From: Rubrobacter indicoceani
GTDB lineage: Bacteria > Actinomycetota > Rubrobacteria > Rubrobacterales > Rubrobacteraceae
Direction of reading: 5' to 3'
Assembly (NCBI RefSeq): GCF_003568865.1
Contig: NZ_CP031115.1
Location: 2,418,001-2,482,000 of the forward strand
DNA length: 64,000 nt
The position numbers were made by a program, and so were the translations under genes. Below are positions 17,388 to 28,683 of this stretch, one piece after another (position 1 is the first letter of the stretch; every line of letters begins with the position of its first letter). Below the pieces are notes generated by a model. It saw nothing but the letters and a program-made list of their open reading frames with translations, ran no database searches and was not told where the DNA came from.

Positions 17388-17684
17388 CTACCCGGAATAT
17401 ACCACGATCGCACCCCGACCCGAAGCTCCGAAACTACTCCGGCATCCCCAGAGAGCAGAAAACCGCCGCCCCCGAACCCGCACCTTCAGACGCCCACCCG
17501 AGGCAAGTTCCTTTGTCTTTTTATCGGCTTCTTTTGCCGTCGGAGAGGTCTCTATCGCAACCTGAGCCGGGGTCACCGAACTCGTGTCGAGGCCGGGATC
17601 CTCCCGGAACTCCACCCCGCCCGAAGAAGTCTTTCCGCGGGCCTTCCGTTCCGGTTTCGATCCGCGCTTTTTCTCCAGATCCAT
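17388..17684 (-). CDS. doubtful small basic protein
   Basis: An open frame of about 98 codons (MDLEKKRGSKPERKARG..., Lys/Arg/Ser-rich, C-terminal RGRRF) in an otherwise gene-free 430-bp gap between a membrane protein and the M20 peptidase. No RBS is visible before the ATG and no family is recognised. It could be noise; nothing else is evident in this gap beyond the inverted repeat at 17339. Confidence 0.25.
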   Translation of the reverse strand: MDLEKKRGSKPERKARGKTSSGGVEFREDPGLDTSSVTPAQVAIETSPTAKEADKKTKELASGGRLKVRVRGRRFSALWGCRSSFGASGRGAIVVYSG

Positions 17685-17817
17685 GACTAGTTCCATACTA
17701 GCAGCAACAACAGTAACTATCCATGCGCCGGACCGGACACCAGAAGGGATTCAGCTCCTGAAATGCTACCCTCTGAGCCATAGAATTTTCCCCGGAACCG
17801 GCTGGAGGAGCACCTTG

Positions 17818-19188
17818 ATGGAGAACCTGAAATCCCGCATCGAAAACCGAAGGGAACTCTTTCTCGGAGAACTGACCGAGTTTCTCGAGATGCACTCGGT
17901 ATCCGCTGAGGGCTCCGACCCCGAAGGCTTCCGGGCCTGCGCCGAGTGGGTGCGCGGAAAGCTCGAGAACGCGGGCGCAAAGGCGCAACTCCTTGAGACC
18001 GCCGGCCACCCGGTCGTCTACGCGGAGATCGGGAGCGGAGAGCGAACCCTGCTCCTCTACGGTCACTACGACGTACAGCCCCCCGACCCGCTGGACCTCT
18101 GGGAAACGGAGCCTTTCACCCCGACCATCAAGGACGGCACGCTCTACGCTCGCGGCGTCGCCGACGACAAGGGCGACGTGATGAGCCGCATCCAGGCCCT
18201 GAGGCTCTATATAGAGGAAGAGGAGCAGGGGGAGCACGGCAACCTCCCCTTCAAGCTGAAGTTCTTTATCGAGGGCGAGGAGGAGATCGGAAGCCCCAAC
18301 CTGGCTTTGTTTGTCCGGGAGAACGCGGAGTTGCTCGAGGCCGACGCCTGCCTCTGGGAAGGCTCCCTGCGCGACGAGCATGGTCGTCCCGAGATCTGCT
18401 GCGGCACAAAGGGGATGGCCTACGTGGAGCTTCGGGCGAAAGGAGCCGACCACGACCTGCACAGCATGTTCGGCGGCATCGCTCCAAACCCGGTGTGGCG
18501 GTTGGTCCAGGCGCTCAGGACGATCAAGGACGAAAACGGCGAGATAACCCTTGACGGCCTGATGGAGCTCGCCGACGAACCATCCGAGAAAGACCTCGCC
18601 GCGATGCGAAGCATCCCCTTCGATGAGTCGTCGCTCAAGAGAGCGTGGGGCGTTGACGCCTTTGACCGGGACCTCTCCGGCGAAGACGCCCTCGCCGAGT
18701 ACCTTCTCAAGCCGACCGCCAACATCGCGGGGATTCAGTCCGGCTACACCGGGCCGGGCTCCAAAACGATAGTTCCCGGCGAAGCGTTCGTAAAGATGGA
18801 CTTCCGCCTTGTAAGCGGTCAGAGCCCCGAGCCGGTCGTGGGGCTGATTCGCGAGCACCTCGACCGCCGCGGCTTCACCGATATAGAGGTCGTTGACCTG
18901 CACGGCGTGGAGGCCGCCAAAACGCCGGTCGACTCCCCCGTGGTCGAGCAGGCCGTGGCCGCCTGGCGCGACGTCGGCCAGAACGAGGCCGTCGTCTACC
19001 CGACGATCGGCGGCTCCGGCCCGACCGCGCTTATCGCAACCGAACTCGGCATCCCGACCGTGATGACCGGTTCCGTGGCCAACCTGAACAGCCGCATTCA
19101 TTCCCCGAACGAGTCAATCGAACTCGACGACTATTTCGAGACCGTCGCCTACTTTGTCCGGTTCTTCAGGCGTTTCGGGAGCAGATAG
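17818..19188 (+). CDS. M20-family dipeptidase/metallopeptidase
   Basis: 456 residues from the ATG preceded by GGAGGAGCACCTTG. The M20 dizinc site is intact: LLLYGHYDVQPPDP (His and Asp), ARGVADDKGD (bridging Asp), FIEGEEEIGSPN (catalytic Glu and metal Glu), and the C-terminal IHSPNESIELDDY His. A lid/dimerisation domain lies in the middle. This subgroup (ArgE/DapE/CNDP-like) hydrolyses dipeptides or acylated amino acids in the cytoplasm. It overlaps the next gene by TAGTG. Confidence 0.9.
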   Translation: MENLKSRIENRRELFLGELTEFLEMHSVSAEGSDPEGFRACAEWVRGKLENAGAKAQLLETAGHPVVYAEIGSGERTLLLYGHYDVQPPDPLDLWETEPFTPTIKDGTLYARGVADDKGDVMSRIQALRLYIEEEEQGEHGNLPFKLKFFIEGEEEIGSPNLALFVRENAELLEADACLWEGSLRDEHGRPEICCGTKGMAYVELRAKGADHDLHSMFGGIAPNPVWRLVQALRTIKDENGEITLDGLMELADEPSEKDLAAMRSIPFDESSLKRAWGVDAFDRDLSGEDALAEYLLKPTANIAGIQSGYTGPGSKTIVPGEAFVKMDFRLVSGQSPEPVVGLIREHLDRRGFTDIEVVDLHGVEAAKTPVDSPVVEQAVAAWRDVGQNEAVVYPTIGGSGPTALIATELGIPTVMTGSVANLNSRIHSPNESIELDDYFETVAYFVRFFRRFGSR

Positions 19189-19781
19189 TGGACGGTCGGA
19201 AAGAGGTCAGGGGTCTCGACCTGCCGGAGAGGGTGCGCTGGAGCATCGCGCAGACGGTGGCGGAGCGGGGCGTTCAGGCCCGCACCATCTCGACGCAGGG
19301 GCGCTCCTCTATGAAGCCGCCTCAGGGCCACATCATCGTCGCCGCGTCGGGAGCCGAGATAGACGCGATACGCGGTACGGCGAGCGTCGTGCGACAACTG
19401 GAGTTCTACAAAACGCCCTTCGGCCCCGTGGTCCGGCTGGCTTTCTCCGTCTTCCCGCTGGCGGGCGGCAGGCTCACAGGCGCAACCGTCCTGAACGTCT
19501 CGCAGGTCTCCGGCGACGCGGCTCTGTCCGGCCTCGGGCGGCAGAAGACCGTCTACTTCCACTTCTACGCGCTTACGGAATCCGCCGACGACCTCGACTA
19601 CGTTTTCTCAAAAGAAGTCAACAACGCTGAAGAGCAGCGCGAAGAGGCAAAGAAAGTCCTTAAGATGGCCCGCGACGCCTACGCCGAAACACCGGAGGAC
19701 AGGCGGAGTTTCCGCCGCGCCGTCGGGATGGCCGAGCGGCAGTTCGCGCCGCCGGAGCTGCCGGAGCCGCAAGACGAGTAA
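19188..19781 (+). CDS. conserved hypothetical protein, translationally coupled to the M20 peptidase
   Basis: 197 residues; GTG start overlapping the preceding TAG. Mixed alpha/beta with SMKPPQGHIIVAASG and VRLAFSVFPLAGGRLTGATVLN, and an acidic helical C-terminus. No TM segment, no signal peptide, no recognised domain. Coupling suggests cytoplasmic function linked to the peptidase. Confidence 0.6.
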   Translation: MDGRKEVRGLDLPERVRWSIAQTVAERGVQARTISTQGRSSMKPPQGHIIVAASGAEIDAIRGTASVVRQLEFYKTPFGPVVRLAFSVFPLAGGRLTGATVLNVSQVSGDAALSGLGRQKTVYFHFYALTESADDLDYVFSKEVNNAEEQREEAKKVLKMARDAYAETPEDRRSFRRAVGMAERQFAPPELPEPQDE

Positions 19782-19784
19782 GAT
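19779..19784 (+). promoter_or_regulatory. -10 box of a leaderless transcript for the nuclease-like gene
   Basis: TAAGAT is followed by six bases and then the ATG at 19791. This spacing places transcription initiation at or next to the start codon, and there is no RBS. Confidence 0.55.
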
Positions 19785-19790
19785 TGAAGT

Positions 19791-20819
19791 ATGGACAGTC
19801 CATTGACAAACCTAAGCAATGTACTGGCGAGGGTTAGGGCTTCTGCGGGGAGTTACGAACCGACGCTCAGGAAGAACGAGGCGGCGACACGGGCGGCTCT
19901 GATAGATCCCGTGCTTCGCGCGCTCGGCTGGGACATTGCAAACCCGTTCATGGTAGAGGTAGAGACGAGAGGTACTTTCGAGAACAAGATCAGCGCGGAC
20001 TATGCCCTCAAGACCGATGGTGAGATCCAGATAGTCATTGAGGCGAAGAAGCTCGGTATCAACCTCGACGCTTTCTATCAGCAAGCTGTCAAGTACAGCT
20101 TCGGCTTCGGAGTGAAACAGGTATTTCTCACGGGCGGTATCGTCTGAGAACATTTCACCGATTTTGTTCAGGGCAACCTAACCCCGGCTCGCAGCCTGGA
20201 TCTCCGCTCAGACGACCTTGAAGAGATAGCAGCCTACCTCGTGCAGGAGCTCGACGCCGCTCTCATCTCTCCGCAGCGAGCGCAAATAGACCTTCTCTCC
20301 GAAGAAGTCTCACAACTCCGCGAAGAGATAGAGAAGCTCCGCTACCTTGAAGAACGTCTGAAAGCCCTGGAATCGAAATCAGAGACTTCTACCCGCTACG
20401 AACCGTCACGACCGAAGAAATCTCCAGTAAAAGTCGGAGACAGTGTTCCGGCTCCTCCTGCCTTGTGGACTCCGCTGACAAAACTCGGAAGGCTCCAAAG
20501 GACAAAGCCAAGCAATCTACGGCTGCCAGATGCAACCGAGGTGGCAGTTAAAAGTTGGGGACAGGTTCTCCTTGAATGCTGCAGGTACGTTTTGCAGTTC
20601 GATTCAGAAATACCGATGCCTTTGAAGGACAGCGCAGGCAAGAAGACCAACCTGATCCAGACAGTTCCTTTCCCCGACAACGTGAATAGCAAAGAAGTCG
20701 AGGTAACCAGAAGGACTTTCTACGTCTACGTCAATTACAGCGCAGGCAAAGCCGCAGAAAACGCGCTCTACATCCTGAAAGCCGCCAGACTCGGAGATGC
20801 AGCAGTAGTCTACGGTTAG
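19791..20819 (+). pseudogene. type I restriction HsdR_N-like PD-(D/E)xK protein interrupted by TGA
   Basis: One continuous frame of 343 codons is broken only by TGA at 20145-20147. Part 1 has ALIDPVLRALGWD, ADYAL (metal Asp) and IVIEAKKLG (E-x-K): an HsdR_N/PD-(D/E)xK nuclease fold. Its family usually continues with T-x-G-x-x-W; here FLTGGIV is followed by TGA, one base from the Trp codon TGG. Part 2 continues with a coiled coil (LLSEEVSQLREEIEKLR) and a ~100-residue alpha/beta domain. Downstream of the stop the frame is fully coding-like, so the lesion is recent, a sequencing error, or recoded. Confidence 0.7.
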
Positions 20820-20839
20820 TCTCCGTACGACATGGCGCG

Positions 20840-20845
20840 TATACT
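20840..20845 (+). promoter_or_regulatory. -10 box of a leaderless transcript for the NurA-like gene
   Basis: TATACT lies seven bases before the ATG at 20853. This supports 20853 rather than the upstream ATG at 20832, which would precede the promoter. Confidence 0.6.
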
Positions 20846-20852
20846 GAAACCC

Positions 20853-22022
20853 ATGTCGGAGGCAAGCATTCCTTACAAAGAGAACGGCTCGACGCAGGAC
20901 TTTTCGACCGCGCTCGCGGCCGCGCTCAAGGATGCCGCTCGCAGCGGGGTGAAGTTCAGCGCGGGTGGCTCCGATCTCGAATGGGAGCGGTTCAACGCGC
21001 ATCCATTCGACGGCGAGGAGGAAGGACGCAGGGATTCTTTGCTCGCCTTCGAGAGCGACCCCGTTGTGGAGCGCAGCCCCGGCGAGCCGGACGGGACAAG
21101 CAGGCTCTCGTACTTTCTCGACGGTGTTCAGACAACCGAGGAGATAGGTCGCATCGGGACCGTCCCGGTGGTCATGACGACGGTTGCGGCGGCTATCGCT
21201 CACCGGGCGGACAGACGGCTCCATCGCCTCGACGTGCCGGGTGTGCCGACGCTGATGCGCGCCCTGATCCTCCCCCACGACGCTCACGACCCCGGTGCGA
21301 GGGCGTTGTACTCGGCGGCGCAGGAGCAGGGTTTTCCGGTGCCGGTCTCCGATGCGGAGGCGGTTACGTCCGGCAGCGAGAACGTCCTGCTCGACTCAAC
21401 CCAGCACGAACCGCACCTTGACCCGGCTGACTATTCCGGTCTGAAGCAGAGAGCTTACCAGCGGGCGTCGTCCTTGCGGGCGGCGATGGAGGTCGCGCTG
21501 CTGGAGCGGTGGTCCCAGATGGAGACGGGGGACAGCTGGATAGCGGTTGACGGCCAGCTCCCCGCCCCGACGGAGAACGCCGTCGGCCTCATAAAGAACG
21601 CAAGGAAGTTCTTTTTCGGGGGCGAAGAGGCGCGCATGCTGCTCGACCTGGAGGCCGGAAAGCGAACGACGGCCTTTGTTCCGCCCTGGCGCAACGAGCG
21701 CATGAAAGCCGGGCGGGCGGAGGAAGAGCGGGCTTCGTGGTACGTAAGGATGTGGCCCGCGTCGGCGTCGAGCGAAGGTGCGGATGCCACGAGCGGGTTG
21801 ATCCGGGTGGAGACCAACGTGCCGTTCAGCCGGCAGTCGGAGACCTTCGACGAGATCAGCCGCTGGATTCTGGCCGAGAAAGCACCCCTGGCCAGGCCGG
21901 ATCTCCGTTGGGCGTCCATGATCTACCCGATTCACTACGTCGAGAAGATTCTGAAACCGACGATCCACGGCGGTCGTCGCACGAGACTAAAACTCGAACG
22001 CGAGATCGCAGACCTAAAGTAA
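20853..22022 (+). CDS. nurA: NurA-like DNA end-resection nuclease
   Basis: 389 residues. The C-terminal half resembles the NurA domain: SWIAVDGQLPA near residue 229 (metal Asp in a DG loop), AVGLIKNARKFFF (G-x-x-K), a central beta region with GLIRVETNVPF, and a YP-x-H-like WASMIYPIHYVEKIL near residue 350. NurA is a 5'-3' nuclease that works with the HerA translocase. The gene is 16 bp upstream of a HerA-like ATPase, the standard partnership, and Mre11 and Rad50 follow. Homology is by motif and context; overall similarity to archaeal NurA looks low. Confidence 0.65.
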   Translation: MSEASIPYKENGSTQDFSTALAAALKDAARSGVKFSAGGSDLEWERFNAHPFDGEEEGRRDSLLAFESDPVVERSPGEPDGTSRLSYFLDGVQTTEEIGRIGTVPVVMTTVAAAIAHRADRRLHRLDVPGVPTLMRALILPHDAHDPGARALYSAAQEQGFPVPVSDAEAVTSGSENVLLDSTQHEPHLDPADYSGLKQRAYQRASSLRAAMEVALLERWSQMETGDSWIAVDGQLPAPTENAVGLIKNARKFFFGGEEARMLLDLEAGKRTTAFVPPWRNERMKAGRAEEERASWYVRMWPASASSEGADATSGLIRVETNVPFSRQSETFDEISRWILAEKAPLARPDLRWASMIYPIHYVEKILKPTIHGGRRTRLKLEREIADLK

Positions 22023-22038
22023 CGTCAGGGAGGGAAGT

Positions 22039-24141
22039 TTGCTTCACGAGAATTTTTCGGATACCGGTTCCGGCCCCGTCGGGCGCGTCGTTACAAGCGA
22101 GGAGTACCCCGCGACGGCCCACGAGTTCTACTTCTGGACAAGCGAATCCGAAGCGGCCCAGCGCCTCGACATAGGCCACATCGTCGCCGCCGAAGCCGAG
22201 GCCGCGACCGCCGTCGCGGTCCTTGACGATCCGCGCCGCTACTCGGATCTCGCCAGCTTTCTCGACGACTTCTACGCCCGCGACGGCGACGCCGCCCTCG
22301 ACGCCCTCTCCGACCGGGTGGAGATCCTCGTCTTCAAGGCGAAGGTTCTTGCAACGAAACACCGCGACGATAAAAAGAAAAGCAAACGCCCGGTGCGTAG
22401 CGGCCCCGTGTTTTTCGCAACGACCGAGGCGATAGAGTTCGCCCTCGGGAAAGAGGACTTCTCCGGCACCGAGATCCCGATGCTCCTGCACGAGAACGGC
22501 AACGAGGTCCGTCCCGGCGTCCCGCAGCGCACGCCGCTCTACGTGGACGAGGATTACCTGCTCGGCCCCGAAGCCGGACACCTCAACATCACCGGCATGA
22601 GCGGGCTTTCCACAAAGACAAGCCAGGCTCTTTTTACGATCTCGTCGGTCTTCCAGAGGGCCGGGGACAAAAAAGTCGCCGCGCTTATGTTCAACGTGAA
22701 GGGCGCGGACCTGCTGTTTCTGGACAAGCCCGTGAACTGTCCGCCCGACGAGGAGCTGCAGAGCCGCTACCGAGACGCGAACGTGCGCGGCCTGTCCTCC
22801 GAAGAGTGCGAGATGTACGATGCTCTCGGCCTCAAGGTGGAGCCGTTCACGAACCTGAGCATCTTTGCGCCCCTCAAGTACGGCATGGACCGGGGTGAGC
22901 GCGAGCTCAACGTCTCGGACGTTCCGGTCCAGAAACTGAACACTCGCCGCAACGCTCGCGGCGAGTCGCACTGCGTCCACCCGATAGTCTGGCAGCTCGG
23001 CGACGTTCTGCCGTACGCCGGTTATGTCTTCGAGCCATCCGACTTCGACGACAAGTTCCGGGGTTTTATAGAAGAACTCCGCGCCCGGCGCATAGACACG
23101 CAGGCGTCTTTTCAGAGCCTCATGCGCGAGATTGACGACTACTTCGAGGAAAAGGAAGCCGAAGGGAAGAGCGGCGGCTGGAACGGGCATCACCAGGCGA
23201 CCATCAACAAGGTCAAAAACCGCTTCAATGGCCTGCCCTCCAAGTGCGCCGGGCTGCTCGCTCACGGGCGCGTTGAGTACGGCGACACCCCGAGAGTAGA
23301 CGACGCCTTCACCGACCGGGAGATGCGCGTCGTTGACATCTCGCAGCTCTCGGGGATACCGCAGGACCTGATCGTAACAAGCATCATCAGCAAGGTCTGG
23401 GATATGGCCGAAAAGGGCGCGCTGAACGTTGACAAGCTTGTGATCTTCGTCGACGAGCTGAACAAGTACGCCCCCGCCGGAAACAAGCCGTCGTCCCTGA
23501 AGGATACGCTTGTAGACATCTCGGCCCGGGGCCGACACCTGAGCCTGACCCTTTTCGGGGCGCAGCAGTTCCGCTCCAAAGTCCACGACGAGGTTGTCGG
23601 GAACGCCGCGACGAGCCTCTACGGGCGCATCGGCGACGAGGAGCTTACAAACGCCAGCTACCGCTCGTTCTCCCAGACAACGCGTGAAGAGCTGCTCCAG
23701 CTGGAGAAAGGCCGGTTGCTGTTGCGCCACGCGCACTACGCAGTCCCGGTCTTCGGACGGTTCCCGAGGCCGCCGGTTCTGATGGGCAAGCAGGGGACGG
23801 ACATCTTCGGCGGGCAGAACGTAGACGTGGCGCAGGTTGTAAGAAGCGTGATGAACAACCTCGTCAGGACCGGCAAGGTCCCGGCGCTGGCGAAGATCCG
23901 CTCGGACATCTCCGGCGTGGACGAAGACCGCATCCACGAGTCCCTGGACAAGATAACGGCGCTCTGCCGCGAGGGCTCGGCCCCGAAAAACCCCTACGAG
24001 AGCTTCAGGAGGTCCATCGGCGGGCGCGACAACCGGCCCGACAGCTTCGGCGGTTTCGGTGGCTTCACGGGGTTCGACGGGGAAAACGGCGGCGGTTCCT
24101 CAGGCTTTCTGGACAACGTCCACCGGCTGCGAGGCGACTAA
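22039..24141 (+). CDS. herA: HerA-like hexameric ATPase / DNA translocase
   Basis: 700 residues; TTG start after GGGAGGGAAGT. An N-terminal HAS-barrel-like region (GPVGRVVTSEEYPAT, IGHIVAAEAE) precedes a FtsK/HerA ATPase core. Walker A is GMSGLSTKTS near residue 186, a G-x-S-G-x-x-T-K-T variant rather than GxxGSGKS. Walker B is LVIFVDELNKYAP near 468, and GNAATSLYGRIGD with YRSFSQTTREELLQLEKGR forms the sensor/arginine-finger region. The tail is Gly/Phe-rich. HerA drives DNA through the complex with NurA during end resection; cytoplasmic. Confidence 0.82.
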   Translation: MLHENFSDTGSGPVGRVVTSEEYPATAHEFYFWTSESEAAQRLDIGHIVAAEAEAATAVAVLDDPRRYSDLASFLDDFYARDGDAALDALSDRVEILVFKAKVLATKHRDDKKKSKRPVRSGPVFFATTEAIEFALGKEDFSGTEIPMLLHENGNEVRPGVPQRTPLYVDEDYLLGPEAGHLNITGMSGLSTKTSQALFTISSVFQRAGDKKVAALMFNVKGADLLFLDKPVNCPPDEELQSRYRDANVRGLSSEECEMYDALGLKVEPFTNLSIFAPLKYGMDRGERELNVSDVPVQKLNTRRNARGESHCVHPIVWQLGDVLPYAGYVFEPSDFDDKFRGFIEELRARRIDTQASFQSLMREIDDYFEEKEAEGKSGGWNGHHQATINKVKNRFNGLPSKCAGLLAHGRVEYGDTPRVDDAFTDREMRVVDISQLSGIPQDLIVTSIISKVWDMAEKGALNVDKLVIFVDELNKYAPAGNKPSSLKDTLVDISARGRHLSLTLFGAQQFRSKVHDEVVGNAATSLYGRIGDEELTNASYRSFSQTTREELLQLEKGRLLLRHAHYAVPVFGRFPRPPVLMGKQGTDIFGGQNVDVAQVVRSVMNNLVRTGKVPALAKIRSDISGVDEDRIHESLDKITALCREGSAPKNPYESFRRSIGGRDNRPDSFGGFGGFTGFDGENGGGSSGFLDNVHRLRGD

Positions 24142-24144
24142 CCC

Positions 24145-24540
24145 GTGACCGACGGAGAGAAAGTCGCGCTTGTAGAGGCATTCTATAAAGCCCGCGCAAC
24201 CGGGGAGGTGGAAGAGATCCGGCGTTTCCTCGCCGACGACGTAGTCTGGCACGAACCCGACGCGGGCTCCGAGCACACGGGCGACCTTACCGGAACGGAA
24301 TCGGTCGTGGCTATGATCTCCGACGCGCAGAGGAAAACAGCCGGGACGTTCAGCCTCGTCCCCGTTCGGATAGTCGCCAACGGGGAACACGCCGTCGCCA
24401 TGATCAACTGGATGGCAAGAAAGGGCGAGGTCGTCATTAAAGGAAAGGAGGTCGCCGTTTTCAGGATCAGAGCCGGAGAGATACGCGAAGCTTCCTTTCA
24501 TCAGGACAACGTAGAGCGCGACCGGGAGTTCTGGAGTTGA
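24145..24540 (+). CDS. SnoaL-like / NTF2-fold protein
   Basis: 131 residues, GTG start, four bases after the HerA stop. VALVEAFYKARATGEVEEIRRFLADDVVWHEP and the alternating strands that follow (VAMINWMARKGEVVIKG, VAVFRIRAGEIREASFHQDN) are typical of SnoaL-like polyketide cyclase/ketosteroid isomerase-fold proteins. The function is not evident. It is a curious insertion between the HerA-NurA and Mre11-Rad50 pairs. Confidence 0.75.
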   Translation: MTDGEKVALVEAFYKARATGEVEEIRRFLADDVVWHEPDAGSEHTGDLTGTESVVAMISDAQRKTAGTFSLVPVRIVANGEHAVAMINWMARKGEVVIKGKEVAVFRIRAGEIREASFHQDNVERDREFWS

Positions 24541-24629
24541 GCGCGGATGCTTTCGAGGCGACCTGCCGGGAGCTCCGAGAACGCTCCGAAAAGGCTCGTT
24601 CCCCACTCGTGAATCGCCCGCGCGTCGGC

Positions 24630-24635
24630 TAGAAT
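24630..24635 (+). promoter_or_regulatory. possible -10 box of the Mre11-Rad50 pair
   Basis: TAGAAT lies about 30-45 bp before the candidate starts of the SbcD gene, within the 120-bp gap after the SnoaL-like gene. An AAAGGAAC RBS follows. No convincing -35 box was found. Confidence 0.4.
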
Positions 24636-24676
24636 CTCTTCCGGGTTACAGAAAGGAACTCTCCCTGAGCATCCGC

Positions 24677-25828
24677 GTGGCGCACATCTCCGATACGCAT
24701 CTTGGCTATGCCCGGTACTCGAAGCTGGAGCCGACCTCCAACCGCAACCAGCGTGAAGTAGACGTTGCAGAGGCCTACAAACGCGCCGTTGACGCCATCC
24801 TCGAAGCCGAAGTAGACCTCGTCATCCACTCCGGCGACGTGTTTGATACGATCCGCCCGGCCACGCACGTCGTGCTTCATTTCCTCCGGCAGACGCAGCG
24901 CATCACCCGGGAGAACATCCCTTACCTCGGCATCGCCGGAAACCACGAAACGCCCCGCCTGCGGGCGACGACGGCCTCCCTTATGTACGCTCACCTTGTC
25001 CGGGCGACGTTCGCCTGCGGCTTCGAGCCGGAGAGCGGGGTCGTCCCGGTCGGGGACGCGCAGGTCGGCGTCTCGCTTGTCCCGCACGGGGCCGTTCTCG
25101 ACCGCGAACTCGTCGTTATGCCCGAGCCGGGTGCGGACCTCAACCTCCTTGTAACGCACGGGACCGTCCCCGGCCTGACCGTGAAGGGCCACGAGCTCGG
25201 GGAGATAGACCTCCCCTCGCACCTTATCTCCCAGCACTTCGACTACATCGCGCTCGGCCACTACCACTTCTTTCACGCGCACGGCACGAACGCCCACTAC
25301 GCCGGGGCCACCGAACGCTTCGGCTTCGGGGAGGTCAACTCGGAACCCGGCTTCGCCCTGCTCACCTTCGACGAATCCGGCGGCACGCCGGAGGTGGAAC
25401 ACATCCCCGTAAGAGCCCGCCCGATGATCGACCTCCGCAGGATAGACGCCTCGGATATGGACGCCTCGGAGCTTACCGAGGCGATACTCCATCACGCAGG
25501 CGCGGCGGACCTGGACGGCGCGATAGTCCGTCAGAGGGTGGCGGAGGTTCCGGTCGGGGTCGCCGGCGGCGTTGACCGGGCGACGCTGCGCGACCTGAAA
25601 CGCCGATGCCTCGACTACTCGCTGGAGTTTACGGAGGTCGGGGCTTCGGAGACCCCGGACCCCGGCGACGCGGGGGCGAACTTCGGGTCTTTGCAGGAGG
25701 AGTTCAAGGCGTTTGTCGGTGGAAAACGCGAACGCGGAGACCTCAGCCCGGCCTTCGCCGCCGACTTCCTCAGGCGCGGCACCGAGTATCTGAACCGGGC
25801 CGGAACGGGCGAGGAGGTCGGGCCGTGA
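24677..25828 (+). CDS. sbcD: Mre11/SbcD-type DNA repair exonuclease
   Basis: About 383 residues. The phosphodiesterase motifs are complete: ISDTHLGYAR, VIHSGDVFDTIRP, IAGNHETPR, LLVTHGTVPG, and IALGHYHFFHAHG, which supply the two-Mn site. The GTG at the listed start gives MAHISDTHLG, slightly short. An in-frame CTG at 24665, seven bases after AAAGGA, would give MSIRVAHISDTHLG and fits the family better. It acts with Rad50 to process double-strand ends and hairpins. The stop overlaps the Rad50 start (GTGA). Confidence 0.92.
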   Translation: MAHISDTHLGYARYSKLEPTSNRNQREVDVAEAYKRAVDAILEAEVDLVIHSGDVFDTIRPATHVVLHFLRQTQRITRENIPYLGIAGNHETPRLRATTASLMYAHLVRATFACGFEPESGVVPVGDAQVGVSLVPHGAVLDRELVVMPEPGADLNLLVTHGTVPGLTVKGHELGEIDLPSHLISQHFDYIALGHYHFFHAHGTNAHYAGATERFGFGEVNSEPGFALLTFDESGGTPEVEHIPVRARPMIDLRRIDASDMDASELTEAILHHAGAADLDGAIVRQRVAEVPVGVAGGVDRATLRDLKRRCLDYSLEFTEVGASETPDPGDAGANFGSLQEEFKAFVGGKRERGDLSPAFAADFLRRGTEYLNRAGTGEEVGP

Positions 25829-28683
25829 TTCTCTCTTCCCTGAAGCTGGAGAACTTCAAGCAGTTCCACGCCCCGCTTGTTCTGGAGCCGCCGGAGGGTG
25901 CGGTCGGGGTCGTCGGGCCGAACGGCAGCGGCAAGACCACGCTCTTTGAGGCCATTCTCTGGGCGTTTTTCGGCGCGAAGGCGGGCGGCCTGCGCTTCGC
26001 CAACGACGCCATCCCCTGGAGCGGCGGCTCGACGGCGGAGAAGTCCACCGCTGAGGTTACGCTCGACCTCGGCGGCGCGTCCTACACGGTATCGAGGTCG
26101 CTGCACCGGGGCAAGGCGACCGCCTGCGTTTACGACTCGAACGGCGCAGAGGTAACGGGCGGCCCGAACGACGTCTCAAACTGGGTGCAGGAGAAACTCC
26201 TTGAGATGGACCGCGTCGCCTTCGACGCGACCTTCTTCGCCCGGCAGAAAGAGCTGGAGTTCTTTGCCGGGACTACCGGGGTAAACCGCCAGCGCGAAGT
26301 GGCGCGGATTCTCGGGTTGGATCAGGTCGAGAAGGCCCAGAGGTTCCTGCGCGCCGACCGGGGCGACCTCCGCAGCGAAGCAAAGGCGATAGAGCAGATC
26401 CTCTCCGGCGCGAACCTCGACGAACTCGAAGCCGCTCTCTCCGAGCAGAGACGGCTCCGGACCGCCCTGAAAGAACGGGCCTCCGGCGCAGCAGAGAAGC
26501 TCGAAGCCCGCACGAAGAACCTTGAAGAAGCTCGGGCCGACCACGACCGCCACGAGGAGCTCTACCGCGAGCACAACCGCCTTATCTCCGAACTCGGCGG
26601 CGCGACGGCAACCCGCGACCGCGCTTCGGACCGGGCAAAGGAATCGGAAGCCCGGCTTCGCAAGCTGGATAAGGACAGGCAGCGCATCCGGGAGCTGGAG
26701 CCGGAATCAAGAGGACTCCCGGAGGTCGAGGCGGAGCTTGCAAAGCTGGAGGAGTCCCGCCGCCGGGAGGAGCGTCTTGAGTCGGCAAAAAGAGAACTCG
26801 CCCGCGTCCGGCGCGAAGCCTATACCGCAGCAAGAGAAGCCGCCGACCTGCTGGAAGCCCTCTCCGGCAGCGATGAACTGCTCCCCGGCTGGTCGGGGGT
26901 GTTCACACCTCCGGACGATCTCGAACGGGCCCGGCTGGCCACCGAGGTCCTTGTCGGGGCCGACGAGGCCCACGAATGCGCCGTCGTCCGGCTCGAAGCC
27001 CTAAGGAAAATGCAGCAGAGACACGAGGAGCTGCGTCTTCTCGAAGAGCGGCTGAAGGGCGCGGCGGAGCACATCGGCAAAAAGAAAGAGGAGCTTTCCG
27101 CTCTCGACGCCGAGATAGAGGCTCTGACGGGCGGCGGTTCTCTTGACGACCGGCTGGCGTCCCTTCGCGGGCGGCACGGCGGTCTGAAAGATAAATCATC
27201 GCGGCTCGGCGGGCTGGCGCGGGCCACCGGGGATGAGGCAAAGAAACTCGCCCGGGCGCGGGCCATGATCGAATCCTCCGACGAACACGCGAAGTGCCCG
27301 ACCTGCCAGCGCGGCTACAAAGACGACGAACACACCGAGGTGACGGCGAGCATCCGCCGCCAGGAAGAAGAGCTCTCCCGCCGGGCGGACGCGACCCGCG
27401 CCGAGTGCCGCCGCCTCGAAGCCGAAGCAAACGAAGTCCAGCGAGAGATAGAGGCCGCCGAGAGATCCCGCTCACGGTTTCATGAGCTCAAGACCAGGCG
27501 GGCCGCCACAAACGAGAAGTACCGGACCTTTCTTGAAAAGCGGGATGAGATCTCCTGCAGCGCCACGAAGGTCCGGCGCGGCCTCGACGGCGCGCCCCCC
27601 CCGGACCCGGAGCAACTCGAAGCGGCCCGGGAGGCCGGGCAGAGGCTCCGTGATCTCCGCGACGCCCGTCCGAAGCTGCTCGGGCTGCTCTCGGCCTCGA
27701 ATAAATCCCTCGCTACCGCCTCCGGGGTAGAGCGCGAAGTCGCCTCGCTCTCCGAAGGAGAGCCTTACAGGGCCGAACGGCACGAACAACTCGGAAAGCG
27801 GCGGGAGGGCATCCGCCACGCCCTCTGGCAGCTTCAATCCCTTGGAGAAAACCTCAAGGCCCGCCCGGAGGTCGAGGCCCGCCTCAAGGAAGAGCGCGCC
27901 GCGAGCGAGAGAGCCGCCGCCCGCGCCGCACAGCTCGGAGCGGCCTGCGAAAGGCTCGGCTTCTCGGAAGAGGCCCACGCCGGAGCAAAGGTCGCGGTTG
28001 CCTCGGCGGAGCGTCTGCGGGATGAATCGCGAGAGGAGAAAGCCCTTGTGGAACGTGAACTGCACGATGCCGAAGGGCGCATCTCCGGCCTCGAAAAAGA
28101 ACTTTCCCGCTACGCCGATCAGCGCGGCATGGCCGACGACAAGGCAAAGGAAGCGGCCTCGCTCGACGGCATGGACCGGTTGATGAGCGAGTTCTACCGG
28201 GAGCTCACGGCGCGGGTCAGGCCGGAGCTTCAGCGTGAAGCAAGCGGCCTCGTAAGTACGCTCACCGACGGACGGTACACCCGGATGGAGTTCGACGAGA
28301 ACTACGCCGTCAGGCTCTTTGACGGGGTCGCGGACGCGTATGAAATATCCCGGTTCTCGGGCGGCGAGGCGGACGTCGTGAGCCTGTCGGCGCGGGTTGC
28401 CCTTTCGAAGATGATCTCGGGCCGGGGCGCGGGGGCGCTCGGCTTTATCGTGCTCGACGAGGTCTTTGGCGCGCTCGACGCAAACCGACGCACCAACGTC
28501 CTGCGCGCGCTCGAACGACTGAAACGGACCTTCGGGCAGATCTTCATCATCTCCCACGTCGCCGACGTGCAGGAATCCCCCCTTCTGGACGAAACCTGGT
28601 TTGTCGAGGAGGACGAGGAGGGCCGGAGTACGGTGCGCGTAGCCCGGCACGTGCCGCTCGGCGCCTCCGAACTCCCCGTCTGA
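25825..28683 (+). CDS. sbcC: Rad50/SbcC-type SMC-family ATPase
   Basis: 952 residues from a GTG that overlaps the SbcD stop, with GAGGAGG upstream. Walker A GPNGSGKTT is at ~31-39 and the Q-loop in FFARQKELEFF. Long Glu/Arg-rich coiled coils flank a zinc hook CPTC near residue 490. The C-terminal lobe has signature SGGEADVVSLSARVALSK (~844) and Walker B GFIVLDEVFGALD (~874), then a D-loop and IIISHVADVQ. It tethers and signals DNA ends with Mre11. Start at the GTG, not the longer upstream open frame. Confidence 0.93.
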   Translation: MILSSLKLENFKQFHAPLVLEPPEGAVGVVGPNGSGKTTLFEAILWAFFGAKAGGLRFANDAIPWSGGSTAEKSTAEVTLDLGGASYTVSRSLHRGKATACVYDSNGAEVTGGPNDVSNWVQEKLLEMDRVAFDATFFARQKELEFFAGTTGVNRQREVARILGLDQVEKAQRFLRADRGDLRSEAKAIEQILSGANLDELEAALSEQRRLRTALKERASGAAEKLEARTKNLEEARADHDRHEELYREHNRLISELGGATATRDRASDRAKESEARLRKLDKDRQRIRELEPESRGLPEVEAELAKLEESRRREERLESAKRELARVRREAYTAAREAADLLEALSGSDELLPGWSGVFTPPDDLERARLATEVLVGADEAHECAVVRLEALRKMQQRHEELRLLEERLKGAAEHIGKKKEELSALDAEIEALTGGGSLDDRLASLRGRHGGLKDKSSRLGGLARATGDEAKKLARARAMIESSDEHAKCPTCQRGYKDDEHTEVTASIRRQEEELSRRADATRAECRRLEAEANEVQREIEAAERSRSRFHELKTRRAATNEKYRTFLEKRDEISCSATKVRRGLDGAPPPDPEQLEAAREAGQRLRDLRDARPKLLGLLSASNKSLATASGVEREVASLSEGEPYRAERHEQLGKRREGIRHALWQLQSLGENLKARPEVEARLKEERAASERAAARAAQLGAACERLGFSEEAHAGAKVAVASAERLRDESREEKALVERELHDAEGRISGLEKELSRYADQRGMADDKAKEAASLDGMDRLMSEFYRELTARVRPELQREASGLVSTLTDGRYTRMEFDENYAVRLFDGVADAYEISRFSGGEADVVSLSARVALSKMISGRGAGALGFIVLDEVFGALDANRRTNVLRALERLKRTFGQIFIISHVADVQESPLLDETWFVEEDEEGRSTVRVARHVPLGASELPV

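What the first reader, a model, noticed from the sequence alone, without database searches (positions are those of the whole stretch)
19791..28683. Archaeal-style HerA-NurA-Mre11-Rad50 end-resection island in a bacterium
Seen: four genes on one strand encode a NurA-like nuclease, HerA-like ATPase, Mre11/SbcD and Rad50/SbcC with zinc hook CPTC, preceded by a PD-(D/E)xK protein broken by TGA. Known: in archaea these four genes form an operon for resection of double-strand breaks, while bacteria usually rely on RecBCD/AddAB/AdnAB. Inference: this lineage may use it for radiation/desiccation break repair or for defence.
Basis: partly seen in the sequence, partly recalled or inferred. Interest (0 to 1): 0.8.

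Follow-up and report, generated by a model that had tools for sequence, protein, structure and literature searches.

The report
Bacterial NurA-HerA-Mre11-Rad50 break-resection operon
A bacterium of the Rubrobacter family carries a core operon for trimming broken DNA ends like the four-gene operon of archaea; its proteins are of the known Deinococcus type, and in this family it has an unexplained extra gene and a gap where phage-defence and toxin genes collect.

Summary
On the + strand the window encodes a NurA-like nuclease (20832-22022), HerA-like ATPase (22039-24141), Mre11 (24677-25828) and Rad50 with a CPTC hook (25825-28683). Pfam misses the first two, but profiles and an AlphaFold model tie them to Deinococcus radiodurans NurA-HerA (PDB 7F6D), with the catalytic residues kept. 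So it is a bacterial-type pair in an archaeal-like gene order; that layout in a bacterium was already in print for Oceanithermus. The cassette is family core: NurA in 34 of 36 Rubrobacteraceae genomes, with relatives in Chloroflexota, Gemmatimonadota, Armatimonadota and other Actinomycetota. The window's genome also has an AdnAB-like pair, so the cassette is not its only resection candidate; six well-assembled relatives lack detectable AdnB- and RecQ-type proteins yet keep all four genes. The broken PD-(D/E)xK gene is a recent insertion, not a part. Two things look new: a conserved upstream gene (19188-19781, unknown function, 37 of 39 family genomes), and an insertion slot between HerA and Mre11, filled in 16 of 25 family genomes, in 9 of them with restriction, toxin-antitoxin or abortive-infection genes. 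DNA end resection for repair is the likeliest role; it is inferred, not shown.

The parts
17584..19188 (+). peptidase-like first gene of the conserved run (M20 family name recalled, not scanned); its last base is the first base of the next gene
   Evidence: adjacent to p197 (gap <=66 bp) in 29 of 29 family loci where both were found
19188..19781 (+). p197: 197-aa protein of unknown function, conserved directly upstream of NurA in the family
   Evidence: 37 of 39 Rubrobacteraceae genomes; no Pfam, NCBIfam or PADLOC hit at E<=1; model pLDDT 81.5; phrog_24179 8.6e-5
19791..20819 (+). inserted HSDR_N-like (type I restriction enzyme R N terminus) gene, broken by an in-frame TGA at 20145; not part of the system
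   Evidence: PF04313 8.2e-9; C-terminal half found in 1 of 60 genomes, its own; third-position GC 0.56-0.68 against 0.79-0.84 for the operon genes
20832..22022 (+). NurA-like nuclease; D97, K255, R359 correspond to drNurA D53, K201, R309
   Evidence: profile to 7f6d_H E 7.1e-45 and 1zup 1.6e-20; model pLDDT 85.5, Foldseek 7f6d_G 1.4e-10; residues
22039..24141 (+). HerA-like ATPase/translocase; K193/T194 Walker A, K221/D224, D472/E473 Walker B, R499 arginine finger
   Evidence: profile to 7f6d_B E 6.1e-172; residues
24145..24540 (+). SnoaL-like gene sitting in the HerA-Mre11 insertion slot; accessory, not part of the conserved set
   Evidence: PF12680 1.4e-13; slot statistics
24677..25828 (+). 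Mre11/SbcD-like nuclease with the phosphodiesterase motifs
   Evidence: PF00149 6e-12; NCBIfam Mre11_Sulfo 4.9e-24; motifs
25825..28683 (+). Rad50/SbcC-like ATPase with CPTC zinc hook; start overlaps the Mre11 stop (GTGA)
   Evidence: PRK03918 1e-40; start; motifs

Best explanation
This is a chromosomal core operon of Rubrobacteraceae (peptidase, p197, NurA, HerA, variable slot, Mre11, Rad50) that processes broken DNA ends for homologous recombination. Proposed working, by analogy with D. radiodurans and archaea: Mre11-Rad50 finds and opens the end; a HerA hexamer pulls the duplex into a NurA dimer, which cuts mainly the 5' strand and leaves a 3' tail for RecA. Shown here: gene identity, catalytic residues, linkage, family-wide conservation. 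Inferred: complex formation, resection polarity, handover between the two pairs, and any role of p197.
For: NurA and HerA match the solved D. radiodurans pair. Residues shown to be needed in drNurA (D53, K201, R309) and drHerA (K175, D487/E488) are invariant in 21 of 21 family sequences (paper sections read). Mre11 and Rad50 carry their motifs. NurA is found in 34 of 36 family genomes; the misses are a 60%- and an 82%-complete genome. NurA-HerA and Mre11-Rad50 each stay tightly joined: no gap over 300 bp in 28 and 24 loci. The same four genes recur in other phyla: of the 80 best of 569 loci, 70 have NurA, 68 Mre11 and 60 Rad50 beside HerA. G002, G008, G010, G014, G019 and G022 lack AdnB at E<=1e-60 and RecQ at E<=1e-60 but keep all four genes.
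Against: No activity data exist for these proteins. In D. radiodurans deleting nurA-herA raised far-UV and mitomycin C resistance about tenfold, so a simple repair role is not secure even there. The window's genome has an AdnAB-like pair and RecJ- and RecQ-like proteins, so the cassette may be redundant here. Two pore arginines that drHerA needs for translocation (R495, R552) fall on A/S480 and N538 in the family; K/R483, R512 and K514 might stand in, untested. The HerA-Mre11 junction is open in 16 of 25 genomes, so the two pairs may not act as one unit.
Confidence: 0.8

Rival explanations
1. The cassette is an anti-phage defence system (HerA plus nuclease, with Mre11-Rad50 as DNA-end sensor), like known HerA-based defence complexes.
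For: PADLOC gives weak partial hits: mad8 to HerA (5.4e-7) and LmuB and mad3 to Rad50. The NurA model also matches the TdpAB complex 8wet weakly. Restriction, toxin-antitoxin and abortive-infection genes sit in the HerA-Mre11 slot in 9 of 16 filled slots.
Against: It is single-copy core with fixed flanks across the family, unlike patchy defence genes; NurA itself has no PADLOC hit; homology to the chromosomal D. radiodurans NurA-HerA is far stronger.
Confidence: 0.08
2. NurA-HerA and Mre11-Rad50 are two independent neighbouring units, NurA-HerA serving replication-fork or growth control as debated for Deinococcus, and Mre11-Rad50 acting as ordinary SbcCD on hairpins.
For: The HerA-Mre11 junction is the only frequently opened one within the cassette (16 of 25 against 2 of 82 for three other junctions). 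In some Actinomycetota loci NurA lies downstream of Rad50 instead of beside HerA.
Against: HerA and Mre11 remain neighbours across phyla (68 of 80 loci), which argues for a shared task.
Confidence: 0.3
3. The operon was imported from archaea.
For: Gene content and order resemble the archaeal operon described in the papers read.
Against: HerA profile: D. radiodurans 6e-172, Thermococcus 8.6e-8. NurA profile: D. radiodurans 7e-45, Thermotoga 1.6e-20, Sulfolobus 0.45. Closest genome relatives outside the family are other bacteria, Chloroflexota at about 50% HerA identity. No tree with archaeal sequences was built.
Confidence: 0.04

Closest known systems
Deinococcus radiodurans NurA-HerA (PDB 7F6D, 7WRW, 7WRX; PMC9960219)
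   Same: Homologous nuclease and ATPase, adjacent genes, same catalytic residues.
   Different: Here linked to Mre11-Rad50 and p197; pore arginines R495 and R552 are not kept; Walker A region reads GMSGLSTKTS against GISGVATKTS.
Archaeal herA-mre11-rad50-nurA operon (cited in the papers read)
   Same: Same four functions clustered on one strand.
   Different: Bacterial-type NurA and HerA; extra upstream genes; a variable slot inside the cluster.
Oceanithermus profundus nurA-hepA-sbcD-sbcC (passage in PMC5448004)
   Same: The four-gene layout in a bacterium, already in print.
   Different: Another phylum; whether it has p197 or the slot was not examined here.

Membership tests
bacterial (Deinococcus-type) NurA | sequence and fold match to solved bacterial NurA | tested here: met
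   profile of 18 sequences to 7f6d_H 7.1e-45; model of the window protein to 7f6d_G 1.4e-10 and 1zup 1.4e-9
bacterial (Deinococcus-type) NurA | catalytic residues drNurA D53, K201, R309 | tested here: met
   window D97, K255, R359; invariant in 23 of 23 and 21 of 21
bacterial (Deinococcus-type) NurA | nuclease activity, dimer, 6:2 complex with HerA | not testable with these tools
   needs purified protein
Pfam NurA PF09376 | match to the Pfam model | tested here: inconclusive
   window protein: none at E<=1, none in its genome; 8 of 18 alignment members match, best 8.1e-6
bacterial HerA | RecA-like core with Walker A K-T, Walker B D-E, catalytic D, arginine finger | tested here: met
   K193/T194, D472/E473, D224, R499 invariant in 21 of 21; 7f6d_B 6.1e-172
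bacterial HerA | N-terminal HAS barrel | tested here: inconclusive
   profile alignment runs from chain residue 11 of 7f6d_B, so it covers that region; no HerA model was made
Mre11/SbcD | phosphodiesterase motifs D-x-H, GD, GNHE, H, GHxH | tested here: met
   20 sequences; some rows lack the first motif through truncated or mis-called starts
Rad50/SbcC | Walker A, signature SGGE, Walker B, CxxC hook | tested here: met
   18 sequences
archaeal four-gene operon | descent from the archaeal genes | tested here: inconclusive
   bacterial relatives score far higher, which speaks against it; no tree built
HerA-based anti-phage systems (PADLOC models) | full-length match to a defence HerA-nuclease pair | tested here: not met
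   only a partial mad8 hit to HerA and none to NurA
Whirly/PUR single-strand-binding fold (for p197) | shared fold | tested here: inconclusive
   several members at Z 2.7-4.7, all under 8; Foldseek none at E<=0.001 in the PDB

The most novel reading that the evidence does not exclude
In Rubrobacteraceae the end-resection operon gained a fifth component, p197, a single-strand DNA-binding protein that guards or hands over the 3' tail. Its HerA-Mre11 junction serves as a docking slot where restriction, toxin-antitoxin and abortive-infection genes are co-expressed with the resection machine, which would then degrade cut phage DNA as RecBCD does elsewhere.
Probability: 0.12. Interest if true: 0.75.

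Novelty: new member of a known kind. Interest (0 to 1): 0.45.

Why it matters
What bacterial NurA-HerA does is disputed, because Deinococcus mutants are not clearly repair-deficient. Rubrobacteraceae offer a natural experiment: NurA was found in 34 of 36 genomes, an AdnB-like enzyme in only 7 of 36, and six genomes at least 96% complete lack both AdnB- and RecQ-like proteins at E<=1e-60. Comparing members of the two groups would test the function directly. The insertion slot would, if functional, link restriction with end resection outside RecBCD.

Tried and rejected
Archaeal import: rejected on the profile scores. Cassette as a defence island: rejected as the main reading. 'Only resection machine of this organism': rejected for the window's genome, which has an AdnAB-like pair. 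PD-(D/E)xK gene as part of the system: rejected. p197 in other phyla: not found by profile in frames from the 70 non-Rubrobacteraceae loci of the 80, nor in 20 distant Actinomycetota loci. p197 fold: no PDB match by Foldseek at E<=0.001; one viral model, A0A0N7A9T9, unnamed, E 4e-5; a PDB sequence-profile search gave only marginal hits, best E 0.026. Slot in other phyla: the HerA-Mre11 gap exceeds 300 bp in 25 of 53 other loci, but of the 16 frames called there 13 form one cluster of related proteins, not identified as defence genes, so the defence slot looks confined to Rubrobacteraceae. No promoter-like site and no Rfam match. Paper searches gave nothing on NurA or AdnAB in Rubrobacter; the listings of searches showed no description of the cassette in Rubrobacteraceae; two older papers were not held. 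The defence share of the slot (9 of 16 against 0 of 9 in the Rad50-bPH2 gap, Fisher 0.008) was counted after seeing the inserts, on related genomes, and counts an opposite-strand ParE in G004.
Full report
What is there. The + strand of 17584-28683 carries a tightly packed run of genes: a peptidase-like gene, a 197-aa protein (p197, 19188-19781), an HSDR_N-like gene broken by one TGA (19791-20819), a 396-aa nuclease (20832-22022), a 700-aa ATPase (22039-24141), a SnoaL-like gene (24145-24540), Mre11 (24677-25828) and Rad50 (25825-28683). Pfam and NCBIfam recognise Mre11, Rad50, SnoaL and HSDR_N, but give nothing at E<=1 for the nuclease, the ATPase or p197.

Identity of the nuclease and ATPase. 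A profile of 18 nuclease sequences (window, 8 Rubrobacteraceae, 9 distant Actinomycetota) finds D. radiodurans NurA 7f6d_H at 7.1e-45 and Thermotoga TM1739 at 1.6e-20; Sulfolobus NurA reaches only 0.45. A profile of 10 ATPase sequences finds D. radiodurans HerA 7f6d_B at 6.1e-172; the next is 6.4e-8, and Thermococcus HerA 8.6e-8. The AlphaFold model of the window nuclease (pLDDT 85.5) has D. radiodurans NurA as its best PDB match (1.4e-10), with Pyrococcus and Thermococcus NurA much lower. PF09376 itself matches 8 of 18 alignment members and not the window protein.

Active sites. Against residues tested in D. radiodurans (PMC9960219; sections on structure, background, digestion, translocation, pin and survival read), NurA D53, K201 and R309 correspond to window D97, K255 and R359, all invariant. 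HerA K175/T176, K217, D220, D487/E488 and R513 correspond to K193/T194, K221, D224, D472/E473 and R499, all invariant in 21 sequences. Against this, translocation arginines R495 and R552 fall on A or S at 480 and on N538 (20 of 21). K or R at 483 (20 of 21) and invariant R512 and K514 are candidate replacements, which is a guess. Mre11 and Rad50 motifs are kept.

Conservation and surroundings. NurA is found in 34 of 60 genomes searched: 34 of 36 in the family and 0 of 24 outside it with this single sequence. HerA is found in 92 of 296 phylum genomes, at about 30% identity outside the family. In 20 family loci the order peptidase, p197, NurA, HerA, Mre11, Rad50 is kept wherever the contig reaches. 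p197 is in 37 of 39 family genomes; misses are G017 (60% complete) and G005, where NurA lies at a contig end. In 20 distant Actinomycetota loci a NurA-like frame was found in 11, an Mre11-like one in 10, a Rad50-like one in 13 and p197 in none; in some of them NurA lies downstream of Rad50. The public genome scan (80 best of 569 relatives) brought in Rubrobacteraceae, Chloroflexota/Thermomicrobiales, Gemmatimonadota, Armatimonadota and cyanobacterial-lineage genomes; NurA is beside HerA in 70, Mre11 in 68 and Rad50 in 60 of 80, some contigs being cut short.

Other resection enzymes. PF12705 finds two large frames in the window's own genome; both carry UvrD motor and PD-(D/E)xK domains, the make-up of AdnAB (recalled). 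The second subunit is found at E<=1e-60 in 7 of 36 family genomes (G000, G001, G007, G011, G013, G021, G024) and not in single-contig G008 and G019; the PF12705 hits of G008 are Cas4-like, and that of G019 is a 181-aa frame. RecJ-like proteins are in 22 of 23 family genomes, just under the curated cut-off; RecQ-like ones at E<=1e-60 in 16 of 23. G002, G006, G008, G010, G014, G019 and G022 lack both AdnB and RecQ at these limits. All but G006 are at least 96% complete, and those six keep the four genes. Weaker RecQ-type helicases are not excluded.

The slot. Gaps over 300 bp occur in 16 of 25 HerA-Mre11 junctions, against 2 of 30 for p197-NurA (the window and G020), 0 of 28 for NurA-HerA and 0 of 24 for Mre11-Rad50 (Fisher 6e-11 against the last three pooled). 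Inserts include XhoI and ApaLI restriction-modification genes, AbiV, a RelA/SpoT-domain protein with a HEPN protein, ParE-like and PIN toxins and DUF433/DUF5615 pairs: 9 of 16 genomes (G003, G004, G021, G024, G025, G026, G027, G029, G030). The other seven hold ASCH (G001, G011), SnoaL (window), a lipoate-ligase-like piece (G008; G019 by its similar start, not scanned) or nothing identified (G007, G031). The Rad50-bPH2 gap, as control, held trypsin-like or weak HhH-GPD genes or nothing identified in 9 of 9. This was a post hoc count on related genomes.

p197. Its model (pLDDT 81.5) has no PDB Foldseek match at E<=0.001. VIA-align puts PURA, Whirly and MRP1/2 chains, which bind single-stranded nucleic acid (recalled), at Z 2.7-4.7, under the level that can be trusted. 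A phage family of unknown function matches residues 102-172 (8.6e-5). A single-strand-binding role is a lead only; its equally tight link to the peptidase-like gene is a caution.

Verdict. A bacterial NurA-HerA-Mre11-Rad50 operon, most likely for DNA end resection in recombinational repair. It is a new, well-conserved member of a known kind, with two features worth following: p197 and the slot.

Noticed in passing
window 19791-20819: HSDR_N-like gene with a single in-frame TGA and lower third-position GC than its neighbours; its C-terminal half was found only in this genome among 60. A young, probably decaying, insertion.
   Followed up: yes
window 19188-19781: Conserved gene of unknown function directly upstream of NurA in nearly all Rubrobacteraceae genomes; distant phage family match.
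   Followed up: partly
L086 2501-5420; L188 1109-3012; L094 8735-9400: XhoI-like and ApaLI-like restriction-modification genes and AbiV inserted between HerA and Mre11 in relatives.
   Followed up: partly
L183 355-8046: AdnAB-like pair in the window's own genome, directly followed by a Csm6-like gene (PF09670 4.3e-19).
   Followed up: partly
L075 15735-16694; L094 13600-14571; L186 9515-10495: A weakly HhH-GPD-like (DNA glycosylase) gene follows Rad50 on the same strand in three family genomes.
   Followed up: no
L114, L118, L136, L139 and others, between HerA and Mre11: In mostly Gemmatimonadota loci a recurring family of about 260-330 aa proteins with signal-peptide-like starts sits between HerA and Mre11.
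   Followed up: no
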